Assembly (NCBI RefSeq): GCF_010091945.1
Contig: NZ_WVIE01000004.1
Coordinates: 124,001-188,000, forward strand
Reading direction: 5' to 3'
Length of the DNA stretch: 64,000 bases
Origin: Myxacorys almedinensis A
GTDB lineage: Bacteria; Cyanobacteriota; Cyanobacteriia; Leptolyngbyales; Leptolyngbyaceae
Shown: positions 4,665 to 11,297 of the stretch, piece by piece
Layout: each line of letters begins with the position of its first letter
How positions within the stretch are numbered: the first letter of the stretch is position 1
Translations under genes and position numbers: made by a program
The notes under the pieces: generated by a model
Told to the model about the DNA's origin: nothing
What the model saw: the letters and a program-made list of their open reading frames with translations, nothing else
The model's database searches: none

Positions 4665-7265
4665 TCATTCCTCTGCTTCTTCAACCCCGCAATCGGCGAG
4701 ACCAACCTCTTCAGCCGAGGGAGGAACTAGCGCCACCGCCGCGATCGCATCGTCTTCATCCAACCGTTGCACCTTGACCCCGGTTGCGCCGCGAGACTGA
4801 GACGAAATTGCCTTGACCGATTGGCGAATGATGATGCCGCGACTCGTAATAATCATTAGCTCGTCGTCCTCATTGACAATATGCAAGGCTGCCAATGTAT
4901 CGCCTTTCTTGCGAAACTTAGTTGCCAAAATGCCCATTCCTGCCCGGTTCTGCAAGCGGAACTGCGTCACGGGCACCCGCTTCCCTAAACCGCCAGTGGT
5001 GATCACCAACGCCCACGGCCCAGATTGAAGCGGAAGTTCAGCATTATCTTCCACCAAAATGTCATCATCCCCTGTCAGCCCTGCCGCCTCTGCCTGAACC
5101 ACATTTTCAACCACTTGACTCGGCAAAATCGCCATGCCAACTAAGCTATCGCCTTTGCGGAGATTCATCGATCGCACCCCCCGTGTCGCCCGACCTAGCG
5201 GACGCAACTGCTCATGATTGACGCGGAAGTGAATTGATCGTCCTTGAGCCGAGCCGATGATGATACTGTCATCCACCCGCGCTAAGCGAACCCATCGCAA
5301 CTGGTCGCCCTCTCCCAGAGAAATTGCGATTAACCCGTTGGAGCGGATGTTTCCAAATGCCGAAAGCGCCGTTTTTTTGATAAAGCCTTTCTGCGTCAGC
5401 ATTACCAAATATTCATCGTCGGTAAACTCTGTCACCGGAATCACCGACGTGAGTTTTTCAGCGTGGGGAATCGGCAGCAGTTGCACGATCGGCGTTCCTC
5501 GCGAGGTGCGCGATCCGATGGGAATTTGGTAGGCTTTGAGCGCGTAAACAACACCGCGATCGCTAAAAAAGAGAATGCTATTGTGATCGCAACAGGTGAT
5601 GAAATGTTCAACAACGTCATCTTCCTTCATTCGCGCTCCCGCTTTGCCGCGAGTTGCCCGGCTCTGCGCCTCAAACGAGTCAACCGGCATCCGCTTGATG
5701 TAGCCCTGCTCGGTGATCAAAATCAGCGACTTTTCGTTGGCAATCAAATCAATATCGCCGAGTTCGTCTTCCGATTGCTCGATCACGGTGCGGCGGGGTG
5801 TCGCATGAGTCTCACGAATCTGTGTGATTTCAGTGGTGACAATTTCTAAAATCCGCTCTCGCCGAGCCAAGATATCCAGCAAATCGATAATCTGCTCTCG
5901 GAGGGCATCGTGTTCTTGCTGGATCTTATCGGCTTCTAAGGCCGTCAGGCGGCGCAACTGCATTTGCAGAATGGCGTCTGCCTGCTGCTCTGAGAGTTCG
6001 TACGTAGAAATTAGTTCTTGTTTTGCCGTTGTCGTATCTGCTGCATGACGAATCAAGTGGATGATCGCATCAAGATTTGACAATGCAATCAACAAACCTT
6101 GTAATAAGTGATCGCGCTCTTCTGCTTTGCGGAGTTGATAGCGAGTCCGTCTGGTGATCGCTTCGATCCGAAAGTCAAGGAAGACGCTGAGAAACTGCTT
6201 GAGCGTCAAAAGCTGCGGCTCGCCATTGACAAGCGCCAGCATATTTGCCCCAAAGTTGGCTTGCAGAGGCGTCTGCTTATAGAGGTTGTTGAGCACAACT
6301 CGGGCGTAAGCGTCGCGCCGCAGTTCGATCACGATTCGCATTCCGTCGCGATCGCTCTCATCTCGCACATCCGAAATGCCGTCGATCTTGCGATCGTTCA
6401 CCAATTCGGCAATCCGCTCAATCAACGCCGCTTTATTGGTTTGGTAGGGCAATTCAGTGACGATGATCGCATCGCGATCGGGGCGTCCCCGGTGTTCGAT
6501 GGTCTCGATCGAACAGACACCTCGCATCGTAATCGAGCCGCGTCCTGTGGTGTAGGCATCGCGAATGCCACTGCGTCCAAGAATCTGTCCTCCCGTCGGA
6601 AGATCCGGACCCGGAATGTAGTGCATCAACTCTAAATCCGTGATATCTGGATTTTGAATCAATGCCGATAAACCATCGATCAACTCCCCCAAATTGTGGG
6701 GGGGAATATTGGTTGCCATGCCGACAGCGATTCCCGATGAGCCGTTGAGCAGCAGTTGCGGGATGCGGGCAGGCAAGACAAGCGGTTCTTGCTGCGATCC
6801 GTCGAAGTTATCGCCAAAATCAACGGTTTCTGCCTCAATATCTTGCAGCAGGGCGTTGGTGGTGAGGGCAGTCAGGCGCGCCTCCGTATATCGCATCGCC
6901 GCCGGTGGGTCATTGTCCACCGAGCCAAAGTTGCCGTGCCCGTTGATCAGCCGCTCCCGCATCGAGAAATCTTGCGCCATCCGCACCAGCGCATCGTAAA
7001 TCGACGTGTCCCCGTGGGGATGGTATTTACCCAGCACATCCCCCACAACCCGAGCCGACTTTCTAAACGGGCGATCGTGGGTCAACCCCAGTTCGTGCAT
7101 GGCGTAGAGAATGCGACGATGCACAGGTTTCAGCCCGTCTCGTGCGTCTGGGAGCGCCCGCCCCACAATCACGCTCATGGCGTATTCCAAGTAAGACCGT
7201 TGCATTTCGTTGCGTAAGTCGGTTGGAATAATCCGATCTTGAGGCGGGTCTTGGGAGAAGGTCAT
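4665..7265 (-). CDS. gyrA: DNA gyrase subunit A
   Basis: 866-residue type IIA topoisomerase subunit that breaks and rejoins DNA while GyrB supplies ATP energy; it introduces negative supercoils. The catalytic tyrosine is Tyr126 in [10 protein letters not shown]. The quinolone region reads [13 protein letters not shown], with Thr87 at the place of E. coli Ser83 and Asp91 at the place of Asp87. The C-terminal domain has repeated beta-pinwheel blades; its GyrA-box is degenerate (SRATRGKAG), as I recall for cyanobacterial GyrA. The ATG at 7265 is preferred over an upstream in-frame TTG at 7304 because GGAG lies about 8 nt before it. ParC is the alternative, but the CTD sequence fits gyrase. Confidence 0.95.
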
Positions 7266-7317
7266 AGAATACTCCGAAAATGTCAGTGCTATCCTGTCAG
7301 CCAAATCAAGCCTAGAA

Positions 7318-7555: not shown

Positions 7556-8884
7556 TCACACTGTAAATTCTGCAAACTCGCTATCTGCGTCTACTTGTGG
7601 CAGGTTGGACGTAGGGTTTGCGGTTTGAACGCTTTGGTTCTTTAGCAACTCACTCAAGGTGAGGCTGGGGTTGTGATGGAGAACATTGAGCACGCCCACA
7701 AAATCTCGAACAATTTCACCTGGGGTAAGTAGGGTTTCAGCGCCGGCGCGATCGCGCAGTGCTGCCACAAACATGTGTAATTCTTGCTGGGTCAACGTTT
7801 TGTCAGACTCGTAGTGATCGTTGTGGAGATCAGAAAGGCGGTGCAGCAGTTTCACCACATGCTCATCCTGTAAGGGTTCTAATCGAATCACAGGCGCATC
7901 AACATCTCTGACCCCCGCTTGCGCTGTAAATCGACTTTGGGTGGTGCGGCGCTGCCAAGCCGGGTCGCTGTAGAGACCCCGGCGCGGATCTTCTAAAAAC
8001 TGCGGTGTGCCGCCGATCAAGGTTCCGAGATACTTGACCTTGCCCTGCATCGCATCGTTAAACATGGCAAGCAGTTTATCGTAATTATTTTGACGAGAAA
8101 CCGTTGTAGAAATCTTAAACAGATGAATCACTTCATCCAAAATGATGATCAAGCCTTTGTAGTCAATATCTGCCACAAATCGCGCAAATAATTTGATGTA
8201 GTCGTACCAGGTGTCATCATCAATAATGACCCGCACGCCTAACGCCGCTTTTGCTTCGGTCTTGGTAGAAAACTCGCCCCGCAGCCACCGCAACGCCGCC
8301 TCTTTTTGCTCGTCGTTATTTGTGCGATAGCCCGACCAATAGGCAATAATCACTGTCGCAAAGTCAAAGCCATTCACGAGATCCGAAACATCTTGGGTCA
8401 CTTCGCGAATCCGCTCTTCTACGTGCTGATCAAACCCGTCATCGTTGGGGTGCTTGCCGGTGGCTTGGGCAACCTGGGTTTGGATCGCGGCGATCCAGCG
8501 CTCTAGAATCGTTGCCAATGCACCGCCATCGGGTCGGCTTTTGGTAGCAAGATTGTGCATCAACTCTCGGTACGTGGCGACGCCTGACCCGTTGTTTCCG
8601 GTGAGGCGGCGCTCTGGGGTGATGTCTGCATCAGCCACGACAAAGCCTCGTTCCATCGCTGCACTCCGAATCAGTTGTAGGGTAAAGCTTTTTCCGGCTC
8701 CGTAGCGCCCAACCACAAACCGAAAGGCGGCTCCCCCCGCCGCAATCTGCTCTAGATCCTGAAGAATGATGGCAAGCTCTGCCTCCCGACCCACTGCCAG
8801 ATGTTCTAAGCCCGATCGCGGCACAACCCCTGCACTGAGGGCATTGATCAAAGCCGTGGAAATGCGTTTGGGAAGTTTGGGCAT
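7556..8884 (-). CDS. BrxD/DUF2791-type P-loop ATPase
   Basis: 442-residue AAA-like ATPase. Walker A is VVGRYGAGKSF (residues 58-67); Walker B is the hydrophobic run ending IIILDEVIHLF. The N-terminal ALSAGVVPRSGLEHLAVGRE matches, as I recall, the DUF2791 family, which includes BREX BrxD and the ATPase found beside TerB-domain proteins and a large helicase. The real start is the ATG at 8884; a TTG six codons earlier is in frame. In this window no helicase, BrxC, PglX or PglZ is present, but a TerB-C coiled-coil protein lies 1.2 kb away. A role in DNA-associated stress response or phage defence is inferred from family context only. Confidence 0.78.
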   Translation of the reverse strand: MPKLPKRISTALINALSAGVVPRSGLEHLAVGREAELAIILQDLEQIAAGGAAFRFVVGRYGAGKSFTLQLIRSAAMERGFVVADADITPERRLTGNNGSGVATYRELMHNLATKSRPDGGALATILERWIAAIQTQVAQATGKHPNDDGFDQHVEERIREVTQDVSDLVNGFDFATVIIAYWSGYRTNNDEQKEAALRWLRGEFSTKTEAKAALGVRVIIDDDTWYDYIKLFARFVADIDYKGLIIILDEVIHLFKISTTVSRQNNYDKLLAMFNDAMQGKVKYLGTLIGGTPQFLEDPRRGLYSDPAWQRRTTQSRFTAQAGVRDVDAPVIRLEPLQDEHVVKLLHRLSDLHNDHYESDKTLTQQELHMFVAALRDRAGAETLLTPGEIVRDFVGVLNVLHHNPSLTLSELLKNQSVQTANPTSNLPQVDADSEFAEFTV

Positions 8885-9296
8885 AGCGGATGGGGGCGAC
8901 AAAACTGGGAACGACGGCGCGATCGCGAATAAACCGATAGGGTAGCATTGTTCGGTAAGGTTTGATCGCGGAGGCTTGGCTTGGGCAACGCTGGGTGAGG
9001 AGAAAAGCAGACGATGAGGGTGCCAGCATCGATTAGTTATATTTGCCTCTTTCAGTAAACTGGGAGGGCAAGCAGCGAAAATTCATACCGCCTCCGTAAA
9101 ACTGCTGATTGATCTTCGTAATTCCTCCGGACTTCTCATCAGAGTGTTCGTAATAATGGATGGAGTTTTTGAACATGGGTCACGATGCTGTGGGGGATGC
9201 CACTTCATGATTCAACAATGGGTAGCTGTTTTAGTAGCGCGAGGTTTCACGCCCCTGGCTCAGGCTGAGTTTGGCGCAGTCAATATTGGGCAGAGG
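8885..9296 (+). other. Divergent gap upstream of the PEP-CTERM gene
   Basis: About 400 nt between the divergent ATPase and PEP-CTERM genes. The frame of the latter stays open back to a GTG at 9144, but the extra 51 residues look unlike protein of this family. Two CCTCCG blocks 39 nt apart (near 9090 and 9125) are the only pattern I saw. No RNA gene was found. Confidence 0.4.
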
Positions 9297-10031
9297 ATGC
9301 TAACCGCCGCCTTTGTATTTGCAGCTTCGATGGGTGGATTAGCCGCGTCGCCCCATGCCCAAGCTGCGGTGTTGTACCAAATAGATGATGGCAAAAGCGA
9401 AGCAGGGGTCGGCATCTCAGACACGACTTGCAGTTTGGAGACCGGCACCGCGATCGCAGATTTTATCTGGCTCAACCAGTTTGAGGTGAGAGAAGGCACG
9501 AACACGATCGATGGGGTCTCGATCGCTTGGGGAACTCCTGCCGCGATCGCACCATGCAGTGGGCAACCCTTACCGCAAAGTGGCTTAACAGAAGGGCTAG
9601 CGGCAAAAGTTTTGGTATATGAAGAGCGGGGAGATGGCACCCTTCAACTGTTGGCGCAGCAAGATACGCCGATTGCCAATCCGGGAACGGATGCTTTTTT
9701 TGATGTCAGGTTTGATACACCAGCGCGGCTTCAAGGCAAGACGTTTTATGTGGGGGCGCTGTTGCCAAATCAGCTTCAAAATCAGTTTCCGGCAGCGTTG
9801 GATAGCCGCGATCGCTCTGGTCAACCCAATTCTAGAAACCAGTCTTACCTGGCGTTTAATCCATTTTTTCCGCAACGGGCTGACTACGACTACAGCGTGA
9901 TTACGCCGACGCTCTACAGCGATGGCAACTTTTTGATCCGGGCGTCTGGGCAGCGCGTGCCAGAACCCTCAGTCGCGATCGCGCTGTTGACGATCGCAGC
10001 AGGGGCAGTGATTTTGAAAAAACGCCAGTAG
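9297..10031 (+). CDS. PEP-CTERM sorted exported protein
   Basis: 244 residues from the ATG at 9297, chosen because a signal peptide starts there (MLTAAFVFAASMGGLAAS, cut after the Ala-rich HAQAA). The C-terminus is a textbook PEP-CTERM tail: VPEPS, a hydrophobic helix AIALLTIAAGAVIL, and a basic KKRQ end. Such proteins are moved to the surface and processed by exosortase, usually alongside EPS. The body reads as a beta-sandwich, and I recognise no catalytic motif. In-frame upstream starts (GTG 9144, ATG 9156, ATG 9207) are possible but would put 30-51 residues before the signal peptide. Exosortase is not in the window. Confidence 0.75.
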   Translation: MLTAAFVFAASMGGLAASPHAQAAVLYQIDDGKSEAGVGISDTTCSLETGTAIADFIWLNQFEVREGTNTIDGVSIAWGTPAAIAPCSGQPLPQSGLTEGLAAKVLVYEERGDGTLQLLAQQDTPIANPGTDAFFDVRFDTPARLQGKTFYVGALLPNQLQNQFPAALDSRDRSGQPNSRNQSYLAFNPFFPQRADYDYSVITPTLYSDGNFLIRASGQRVPEPSVAIALLTIAAGAVILKKRQ

Positions 10032-10052
10032 TTCGCAAATAGTTACAGTAGG

Positions 10053-11297
10053 CTAAGGCTTTCGTAAATGCTCTAGCAAGGCGTGGATCGTCTCGGCATA
10101 TTCTGGAGCCACGATCGGGGCGCTAGCACTGGGATCGATAATTAAATCTCCGACCGTATCCATGGCATGTTCGTTAATCGAGTCGATCAGCAGCGCGGGC
10201 ATAGTCAGGTGATCTTCTGAAATTTGCTTGAGGGCAGGGCTAGGGTTGGTGTGTTCTGCGATCGCAATCAAGGCTTTAAATTCAGAATCAGAAAGCTGAT
10301 TGAAAAAATTCATCCATTCCATCGTGGGCAGGGCAGAATCGGCACCCGCCTTGGGTTGAGATGGGGGCTGAAGGGGCGGGGTCTGCGCGGATAGTGGGGT
10401 TTTGCTGGTGAGTTCGCCCTGGAGGGAGGCTAGCTCTTGATCGAGCATTTCTTTTTGGTCGCGCCGTTCTAAAATCTGGGTTTCGAGTTGCCCCAACTCC
10501 CCGTGGAGCGAAGAGATCTGCACCTGGAGATGCTCGATCGCCCCTTGAAGCGATCGCGAACTATTTTCCACCTGCTGTCGCTTGGGTTCGGCAGAGGCTA
10601 AAAATTGATTCAGTTCGGTGCGGTAGCGTTCCAGGTCGCGAACTCTGGGTTCTAGGGCGACCAGTTCCATCTCTAGCTGCTGCTTTTGAGTAGTCAGGGT
10701 AGCGATTTCTTTGTCTAGGTCGTCTTTGCGGTGGGCATGGTCGAGCAGTTGGGCTTGAATCTGGTTGAGTTCGGCTTGGGTGGTTTTAACGGCAAGCTCG
10801 GCGCGTTGTTTAGCAGAAAGCGTTGCCGAAAGGGCGTTGTTTAGCTCTGCTTCTTTCTGCTCAAGTTCTTTGAGTCTGACTTGCAGCCCATACATTTGAT
10901 TTGCCGTGGGCGGCAGTTCGGTTGTGCCCAGATTCCAACTCAGTTCTTCTTTTTGTTTCCAGAGATTAGAGCTTTGGATCTGCAACGTGCGAAGCTGCGT
11001 TTGCATAGAGTTCAAGCTATTGGCGATCTGATCGCGCTCTGTAGTCATGATCACGAGGGCTTCGTAAGCTTCTGCCCGTCTGCGTTGCAGCGCCCGAATA
11101 TGGAGTTTCAATTCTTCACTGCGTTGGCTCAGGGCATGGCGATAGCGTCCTTCTGTGGCTGCCACGCCGATCAGACTGGCAACAACGGTGATTGCCCCCA
11201 TGAGTAGCGCTCTGCCGAAGTCTCTTGCGGTGAGTAGCCCGATGAAGAAACTAACGCTGAAGGCGGTTAAGCTGAGAAGCAATCGACTTTTGAACAT
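10053..11297 (-). CDS. Membrane-anchored coiled-coil protein with TerB C-terminal-like domain
   Basis: 414 residues from the ATG at 11297. Residues 4-50 form two membrane segments (LLLSLTAFSVSFFIGLL and ALLMGAITVVASLIGVA). About 240 residues of Glu/Gln/Leu-rich coiled coil follow, then a Pro-rich linker. The last 85 residues (EWMNFFNQLSDSEFKAL through MPALLIDSINEHAMDT and GDLIIDP) match the TerB_C pattern seen in cyanobacterial proteins annotated as tellurite resistance TerB C-terminal. The frame is open upstream to an ATG directly after the MFS stop (11438), but that 47-residue extension is basic and unstructured. It may be cotranscribed with the MFS gene. TerB_C proteins are usually linked to the DUF2791 ATPase, which lies 1.2 kb downstream here. 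Confidence 0.72.
   Translation of the reverse strand: MFKSRLLLSLTAFSVSFFIGLLTARDFGRALLMGAITVVASLIGVAATEGRYRHALSQRSEELKLHIRALQRRRAEAYEALVIMTTERDQIANSLNSMQTQLRTLQIQSSNLWKQKEELSWNLGTTELPPTANQMYGLQVRLKELEQKEAELNNALSATLSAKQRAELAVKTTQAELNQIQAQLLDHAHRKDDLDKEIATLTTQKQQLEMELVALEPRVRDLERYRTELNQFLASAEPKRQQVENSSRSLQGAIEHLQVQISSLHGELGQLETQILERRDQKEMLDQELASLQGELTSKTPLSAQTPPLQPPSQPKAGADSALPTMEWMNFFNQLSDSEFKALIAIAEHTNPSPALKQISEDHLTMPALLIDSINEHAMDTVGDLIIDPSASAPIVAPEYAETIHALLEHLRKP

What the first reader, a model, noticed from the sequence alone, without database searches (positions are those of the whole stretch)
7556..11297. BrxD/DUF2791 ATPase near a membrane coiled-coil TerB-C protein, with no helicase
The ATPase at 7556-8884 and the protein at 10053-11297 are on the same strand, 1.2 kb apart, with a surface PEP-CTERM gene inserted between them on the other strand. 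Elsewhere DUF2791 ATPases go with TerB-domain proteins and a large helicase in stress or defence sets. Here the TerB-C-like domain is tethered to the membrane by two helices and a long coiled coil. This could be a membrane-linked, stripped-down form of such a system.
Basis: partly seen in the sequence, partly recalled or inferred. Interest (0 to 1): 0.65.

Follow-up and report, generated by a model that had tools for sequence, protein, structure and literature searches.

The report
Membrane-tethered Shango defence-like set, cyanobacteria
Two genes of a filamentous cyanobacterium, together with a helicase gene elsewhere in its genome, make up a rebuilt version of a known anti-virus gene set called Shango, in which one part has become a membrane-anchored rod and which is found in most members of a large cyanobacterial family instead of being a rare mobile extra.

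Summary
The two genes are real: an intact BrxC/BrxD-family ATPase (7556-8884) and a membrane-hairpin, coiled-coil, TerB_C protein (10053-11297) flank a PEP-CTERM gene. The ATPase is SngB of the anti-phage system Shango (574 bits; BrxD misses its cut-off); the other is a divergent SngA (61 bits). 'No helicase' is wrong: the genome encodes the third Shango protein, SngC (803 bits), on another contig. All 30 full-SngB genomes of the phylum sample also have SngC and TerB_C. In family f7, SngB is in 134 and SngC in 131 of 147 genomes, often far apart, and mostly lost together. Core cyanobacterial SngBs form one clade; SngA there lacks TerB_N and has a predicted membrane segment in 59 of 60 cases, against 3 of 41 elsewhere. 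So this is a lineage-specific, membrane-tethered, dispersed, apparently mainly vertical Shango variant. Whether it still fights phages or is now housekeeping is open; the membrane-surveillance mechanism is inferred.

The parts
7556..8884 (-). sngB: Shango-type ATPase (BrxC_BrxD/DUF2791), 442 aa, Walker A GRYGAGKS at about 8687-8710 and Walker B LIIILDE at about 8132-8152
   Evidence: Pfam PF10923 543.6 bits; PADLOC SngB 574.4 bits; only PF10923 match in the genome; G59, G62, G64, K65, D250 and E251 invariant in the 12-row alignment; dN/dS 0.07 against the same-genus genome G179
10053..11297 (-). sngA-like: membrane hairpin, coiled-coil, TerB_C protein, 414 aa
   Evidence: PF15615 46.8 bits; PADLOC SngA 61.1 bits over its C-terminal part; AlphaFold2 model; start supported by the G179 orthologue beginning MFKSRLLL
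11157..11294 (-). residues 2-47: two predicted transmembrane helices (hairpin)
   Evidence: hydropathy and model helices 2-24 and start of 27-124
10419..11156 (-). residues 48-293: long helices / coiled coil
   Evidence: model helices 27-124 and 134-293; coiled-coil families in Pfam/NCBIfam lists
10056..10325 (-). residues 325-414: C-terminal part of TerB_C, predicted winged-helix-like, net charge -10
   Evidence: domain model pTM 0.79; matches are mostly winged-helix regulators, best Z 7.4; charge
9144..10031 (+). PEP-CTERM protein gene lying between sngA and sngB on the other strand; keeps this place in some relatives; a role in the system is not shown
   Evidence: TIGR02595 21.2 bits; homologues in the same place in L098, L258, L267, L268 and beside sngB in L266
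11439..12827 (-). context only: MFS transporter next to sngA, also next to it in the same-genus genome G179
   Evidence: PF07690; neighbourhood
4665..7304 (-). context only: DNA gyrase A-like gene downstream of sngB; a homologue sits in the G417 locus too
   Evidence: ORF; homologue in L258; the name is recalled from the sequence, not searched

Best explanation
The two genes are the SngB and SngA parts of a cyanobacterial variant of the three-protein Shango system; the third part, the SF2 helicase SngC, is encoded elsewhere in the same genome. Shown: identity, co-occurrence, co-loss, purifying selection, the changed SngA architecture. Inferred: SngA sits in the inner (or thylakoid) membrane with both ends in the cytoplasm, holds out a rod of roughly 250 residues, and presents an acidic winged-helix-like TerB_C head that docks the soluble SngB ATPase, which in turn works with SngC on DNA. 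The tether would place the helicase-ATPase pair next to the membrane, where phage DNA enters and where the nucleoid meets the envelope, so that incoming or damaged DNA is seized and processed there. The set appears mainly vertically inherited and acts as a resident, constitutive defence (or DNA-integrity) machine, not as a mobile island system.
For: SngB 574 bits, SngA 61 bits; SngC 803 bits in the genome. 30 of 30 full-SngB genomes have SngC above 700 bits and TerB_C. Family f7: SngB 134, SngC 131, TerB_C 142 of 147; SngB and SngC absent together in 12 genomes, present together in 130, discordant in 5, although 18 of 43 assemblies of at most 10 contigs have them more than 290 kb apart on linear coordinates. 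SngB and SngC distances correlate at 0.95 for the 15 genomes in which the genes are on different contigs or over 50 kb apart, 0 of 1000 permutations as high. One SngB clade of 77 rows; of 56 with a TerB_C protein within 3 kb, 55 have the membrane type and 1 a split SngA. TM segment in 59 of 60 cyanobacterial SngA against 3 of 41 others. TerB_N absent in 36 of 38 genomes with core-type SngB (30 of the 38 placed by the tree, 8 by family only). dN/dS 0.05-0.22 over 11 comparisons of the three genes. Acidic head in all 24 rows examined, net -6 to -15. Shango protects P. aeruginosa PAO1 from several phages (PMC10250203, passages).
Against: No experiment shows defence by this variant. Presence in about nine tenths of a family is unusual for a defence system and fits a housekeeping role as well. 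The distance correlation is also high with the unrelated DUF815 gene (0.89 for SngB, 0.85 for SngC), so it speaks for vertical descent, not for interaction. SngA outlives SngB/SngC in 8 of 147 genomes, so it may have another partner (DUF815 ATPase beside it in many Nostocales loci). In the window's own family a TerB_C protein was seen in the fetched stretch in only 4 of 17 core loci, and SngC in 7 of 17. Docking of TerB_C on SngB and the membrane topology are predictions; fold matches stay below Z 8.
Confidence: 0.5

Rival explanations
1. Housekeeping machine: in filamentous cyanobacteria the set has been domesticated into a DNA-processing or envelope-nucleoid complex with no present role in phage defence; mobile Shango is its defence cousin.
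For: One SngB in each of 134 of 147 genomes of f7 at E<=1e-100 and SngB in 32 of 42 genomes of the window's family; genes scattered; conserved neighbours in Nostocales and in the window's genus; 692 plasmid records hold SngB homologues but the best listed is 51-53% identical (Paenibacillus), below the 57-72% of the core cyanobacterial SngBs aligned; both SngB and SngC absent from six small genomes (3.8-4.5 Mb).
Against: Also lost in genomes of 5-6 Mb (for example one of four in g59, one of two in g53), so not essential; full SngB in only 30 of 291 genomes phylum-wide; its nearest named relatives are defence genes.
Confidence: 0.35
2. SngB and the TerB_C protein are not one system: the TerB_C coiled-coil protein works with the adjacent DUF815 ATPase in envelope biology, and SngB-SngC is a separate two-protein pair that only shares the locus.
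For: In many Nostocales loci DUF815 lies beside sngA; SngA persists without SngB/SngC in 8 of 147 genomes, and the two such loci read keep DUF815 near it; G056 has sngA with DUF815 on one contig and sngB with sngC on another; in the window's family SngA is often not near SngB.
Against: A TerB_C protein is present in all 134 f7 genomes with SngB, and under 1 kb from it in 43 of 43 assemblies of at most 10 contigs; the TerB_C head matches that of true SngA; DUF815 also occurs without Shango (48 strong matches in 64 genomes, 27 of them in genomes with full SngB) and is on another contig in the window's genome.
Confidence: 0.12
3. Ordinary mobile Shango that happens to be split by assembly or rearrangement in this strain; nothing lineage-specific.
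For: Shango-type SngB is common on plasmids elsewhere (692 records, 542 predicted conjugative).
Against: Unlinked SngC and the same SngA architecture recur across genera, one SngB clade, no TerB_N in 36 of 38 genomes; the two that have TerB_N carry a second, canonical-type SngB besides the core one.
Confidence: 0.03

Closest known systems
Shango (SngA-SngB-SngC) anti-phage system of E. coli and Pseudomonas aeruginosa PA14
   Same: SngB-type ATPase (574 bits), SngC-type helicase (803 bits), a TerB_C-bearing SngA (61 bits)
   Different: Genes dispersed in this genome; SngA lacks TerB_N and TerB and has a membrane hairpin plus coiled coil; found in about nine tenths of one family, whereas in P. 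aeruginosa it is one of many systems in a variable hotspot
BREX (BrxD, BrxC, BrxHI/BrxHII)
   Same: SngB shares the PF10923 ATPase family and SngC resembles BrxHI/HII (426 bits)
   Different: BrxD equivalog cut-off not reached (193.5 of 350); no second PF10923 match in the genome, hence no BrxC seen; SngC scores 803 bits with its own model
TerB/TerB_N/TerB_C proteins of tellurite-type stress systems
   Same: TerB_C domain present
   Different: No TerB (PF05099) or TerB_N match in the protein (25 of 38 families shown) and no TerB_N in the genome

Membership tests
Shango | SngB-type BrxC/BrxD-family ATPase | tested here: met
   PADLOC SngB 574.4 bits, BrxD 190.3
Shango | SngC-type DEAD/DEAH helicase in the same genome | tested here: met
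   802.8 bits at G000:C10:87960-90125; best PADLOC model SngC 802.9, next BrxHI/II 425.8
Shango | SngA with TerB-like protein architecture (TerB_N/TerB/TerB_C) | tested here: not met
   Only TerB_C seen; SngA model 61 bits against 310 and 345 for two TerB_N-type SngA; TerB_N absent from the genome
Shango | three genes in one operon | tested here: not met
   SngC on another contig, PEP-CTERM gene between sngA and sngB; met in other cyanobacteria, e.g. G019
Shango | anti-phage activity | not testable with these tools
   needs phage assays
BREX | BrxD equivalog score | tested here: not met
   193.5 bits, cut-off 350
BREX | BrxC (second PF10923 protein) | tested here: not met
   single PF10923 match in the genome
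BREX | PglX methyltransferase and PglZ phosphatase | not tested
   not searched
TerB_C domain (PF15615) | score over gathering cut-off | tested here: met
   46.8 bits against 26.3
winged-helix fold (C-terminal head) | structural match to solved winged-helix domains | tested here: inconclusive
   the listed rows are mostly winged-helix regulators, but best Z is 7.4 and best Foldseek E 0.034

The most novel reading that the evidence does not exclude
Filamentous cyanobacteria have turned Shango into a core, membrane-anchored DNA-surveillance machine: an ancestral TerB_N-type SngA was replaced by a membrane hairpin, coiled-coil rod and TerB_C head, once, at the base of the clade, and the unlinked SngB-SngC motor has since been inherited with the chromosome as resident innate immunity or as a housekeeping envelope-nucleoid complex. 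It implies that SngA in all Shango systems acts by positioning the ATPase-helicase pair.
Probability: 0.4. Interest if true: 0.75.

Novelty: new variant of a known kind. Interest (0 to 1): 0.57.

Why it matters
The paper listings I saw (one search showed 20 of 4,604) gave no mechanism for Shango, and defence systems are usually thought of as patchy and mobile. Here a Shango-type set is found in about nine tenths of one cyanobacterial family, with its parts often scattered yet lost together, and with an SngA reduced to an anchor, a rod and the TerB_C head. That gives a direct handle on what SngA does (tethering and docking) and on whether a defence system can become core immunity or housekeeping. 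A tool that requires the three genes side by side would be expected to miss it in genomes such as this one (inference; no such tool was run).

Tried and rejected
Rejected: 'no helicase' (SngC found). Rejected: BREX membership. Considered that SngA was split into a separate TerB_N protein: no TerB_N in 36 of 38 core-type genomes; the TerB domain alone (PF05099) was not searched genome-wide. Considered DUF815 as a fourth obligatory part: it also occurs without Shango and is unlinked in the window's genome. Considered phage carriage: no match among 50,697 phage records. Defence-island context was not searched: neighbours were clustered among themselves and ten neighbours or relatives scanned with Pfam, and only five proteins more with PADLOC. 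Solved-structure sequence searches gave nothing for SngB; for SngA the 60 of 95 rows shown are mostly generic coiled coils. Foldseek for the whole SngA and for its head gave no match with E at or below 0.001. Literature: (titles and abstract beginnings of the listed papers only: 4 of 4, 20 of 4,604, 0, 2 of 2, 10 of 105, 15 of 98, 10 of 15, 2 of 2) showed no report of Shango as a core cyanobacterial system; of the papers I opened only PMC11291487, whose passages say nothing of Shango in cyanobacteria. The 2012 Ter-domain paper is not held and is known to me by recall only. Rows left out: L125 and L126 (short or cut SngA), L255 and L257 (second, canonical-type copies) were in neither set of the membrane count; proteins of 250 aa or less were dropped there; at least two genomes are in that set and in the tree twice (L111/L197, L169/L258). 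TerB_C proteins in fetched loci were found with an HMM of my own, so divergent ones may be missed. The FastTree is midpoint-rooted and warns of long branches; no careful tree or AU test was run. Distances are linear, so some large ones may be shorter on a circle. Several dS values exceed 1, so those ratios are rough.
Full report
1. What is in the window. The minus strand carries a 442-aa ATPase gene (7556-8884) and a 414-aa gene (10053-11297); a PEP-CTERM gene (9144-10031) lies between them on the plus strand. The ATPase matches Pfam BrxC_BrxD (543.6 bits) and, best of all, the PADLOC model SngB of Shango (574.4 bits); the NCBI BrxD model scores 193.5 against a cut-off of 350. The second protein matches TerB_C (46.8 bits, cut-off 26.3) and the C-terminal part of the PADLOC SngA model (61.1 bits).

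2. The missing helicase. A search of the whole genome with SngC found one strong match (802.8 bits) at G000:C10:87960-90125, against 71.7 bits for the next helicase. It has the DEAD/DEAH and helicase C domains, helicase motifs AGTASGKT, DEIH, SATL and QRLGRSGR, and SngC is its best PADLOC model. Motifs DExH, SAT and QRxGRxGR are in 26 of 26 cyanobacterial SngC looked at; the exact SGKT of motif I is in only 4, one other read shows AAGKT. The genome has one PF10923 match and one TerB_C match, both in the window.

3. Co-occurrence. Of 291 genomes of the phylum, 30 have a full SngB (at least 510 bits). In a panel of 64 of these genomes (30 with full SngB, 34 without), all 30 have SngC above 700 bits and a TerB_C protein. 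Among the 34 others, 3 have a weaker SngC-like helicase (about 400-465 bits) and 2 have TerB_C (G044, G058). In the family f7 (147 genomes at least 95% complete; it holds Nostocales, judged from a named record with identical SngB and contig length) SngB is in 134, SngC in 131 and TerB_C in 142. SngB and SngC are both present in 130, both absent in 12, SngC alone in 1 (G322, with 9 stops) and SngB alone in 4 (two with stops). A TerB_C protein is present in all 134 genomes with SngB and in 8 without SngB and SngC, one of those a match below the cut-off. In the window's family SngB is in 32 of 42 genomes and 14 of 19 genera; SngC and TerB_C were searched genome-wide there only for three genomes, all positive.

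4. Dispersal and coupling. In 43 f7 assemblies of at most 10 contigs, TerB_C and SngB are under 1 kb apart in all 43, while SngB and SngC are under 5 kb in 18, about 15-125 kb in 7 and above 290 kb in 18 (linear coordinates). Losses strike both unlinked genes in several genera (g15, g53, g59 among them). Protein distances of SngB and SngC correlate at 0.96 in 26 genomes and 0.95 in the 15 with the genes on different contigs or over 50 kb apart, none of 1000 permutations as high; this shows shared, mostly vertical history and is not by itself proof of interaction, since SngB and SngC also correlate with DUF815 at 0.89 and 0.85 (21 genomes). dN/dS is 0.06-0.08 for sngB (4 pairs), 0.05-0.13 for sngC (3 pairs) and 0.06-0.22 for sngA (4 pairs). 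In the window's family the coupling of position is looser: of 17 core loci fetched, 4 show a TerB_C protein and 7 show SngC within the stretch.

5. The changed SngA. In the 8 non-cyanobacterial SngA that I scanned with Pfam, TerB_N and TerB_C are present; G018 and G116, of the phylum but outside the class, also have TerB. In the cyanobacterial set, 59 of 60 TerB_C proteins have a predicted membrane segment in the first 110 residues (52 have two), against 3 of 41 in the others (Kyte-Doolittle, window 19, threshold 1.6). Of 42 genomes searched for TerB_N, 4 have it: G018 and G116, and G423 and G417, which carry a second SngB; 36 of the 38 genomes with core-type SngB lack it (30 of the 38 are in the tree, 8 are assigned by family). 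In the tree of 125 SngB rows (122 different) the core cyanobacterial rows form one clade of 77 (support 100), 55 beside a membrane-type SngA, 21 with no TerB_C protein found within 3 kb, 1 with a split SngA; the second SngBs of G423 and G417 fall with G018, G016, G116 and G288. G288 has a short SngA beside a SngB of that other clade, so shortening of SngA may have happened twice.

6. Structure. The AlphaFold2 model of the window SngA (26 rows, mean pLDDT 82.9) shows a hairpin, helices 27-124 and 134-293, a disordered linker of about residues 294-325 and a compact head; the low pTM (0.29) means that the relative placing of the parts is not predicted. The head alone folds with pTM 0.79 and its nearest solved folds are mostly winged-helix regulators at Z up to 7.4, below the level that would settle it. 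The head is acidic in all 24 rows (net -6 to -15), which argues for protein docking over DNA binding (inference). In 12 of the 18 rows the second membrane helix is followed by DKRRR or a near variant (the window has EGRYR), which suggests that the rod is cytoplasmic.

7. Mobility contrast. Homologues of SngB are on 692 plasmid records (all under 60% identity, 542 predicted conjugative), with Klebsiella, Salmonella and Escherichia leading; the best listed rows are Paenibacillus at 51-53%, and the 40 of 692 rows shown hold no cyanobacterium. None is in the phage records. The window's SngA matches only three Tolypothrix/Microchaete plasmid records, through its anchor and coiled coil (residues 1-295) without TerB_C in the one examined.

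8. Known biology. Shango is a TerB-like protein, ATPase and helicase that gave 10-100-fold protection against many phages in P. aeruginosa PAO1, and about 10-fold against two phages in E. coli (PMC10250203, passages). SngC forms a possible SF2 clade with BrxHI, DruE and DpdJ (PMC12278908, passages). TerB in Shango has no assigned function in a domain review (PMC10952713, passage).

9. Reading. Identity as a Shango-derived set is well supported; strict membership is not claimed, because operon structure and SngA architecture were tested and not met. The mechanism (membrane tether, docking head, helicase-ATPase working on DNA at the membrane) is inferred. Defence against housekeeping is undecided: about 0.5 for resident defence or DNA surveillance, 0.35 for housekeeping.

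Noticed in passing
window 9144-10031; L098, L258, L266, L267, L268: A PEP-CTERM (surface-sorted) gene keeps its place between sngA and sngB, or beside sngB, in five other genomes of the window's family, at 27-62% identity: 4 of the 17 core loci, plus G179.
   Followed up: partly
G044, G058, G097, G143, G147, G278, G321, G351 (family f7): TerB_C protein kept although SngB and SngC are both gone (8 of 147, G143 below cut-off); in the two loci read (L129, L130) DUF815 is still near it.
   Followed up: partly
L255 (G423) and L257 (G417): A second, TerB_N-type Shango locus besides the core one elsewhere in the genome, with TerB_N split over two reading frames in both and SngC split over two ORFs in G423.
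   Followed up: partly
L101, L102, L110, L122 and other Nostocales loci: Recurrent divergent neighbours of the DUF815-sngA-sngB locus: a Tmemb_14 protein, an APH-type kinase and a HopA1-like protein.
   Followed up: no
L275:6001-8568 (Tolypothrix sp. PCC 7712 plasmid): 855-aa protein resembling the SngA anchor and coiled coil (29% over residues 1-295) without TerB_C, in a row of genes with two large DEAD/DEAH helicases.
   Followed up: partly
G300, G324, G390, G394 (family f7): A second SngC-like helicase at 456-474 bits besides the true SngC.
   Followed up: no
L125 (G288): A short (289 aa) TerB_C protein with a hydrophobic N-terminus (below my threshold) and charged helices beside a SngB of the other clade: perhaps an independent shortening of SngA.
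   Followed up: no
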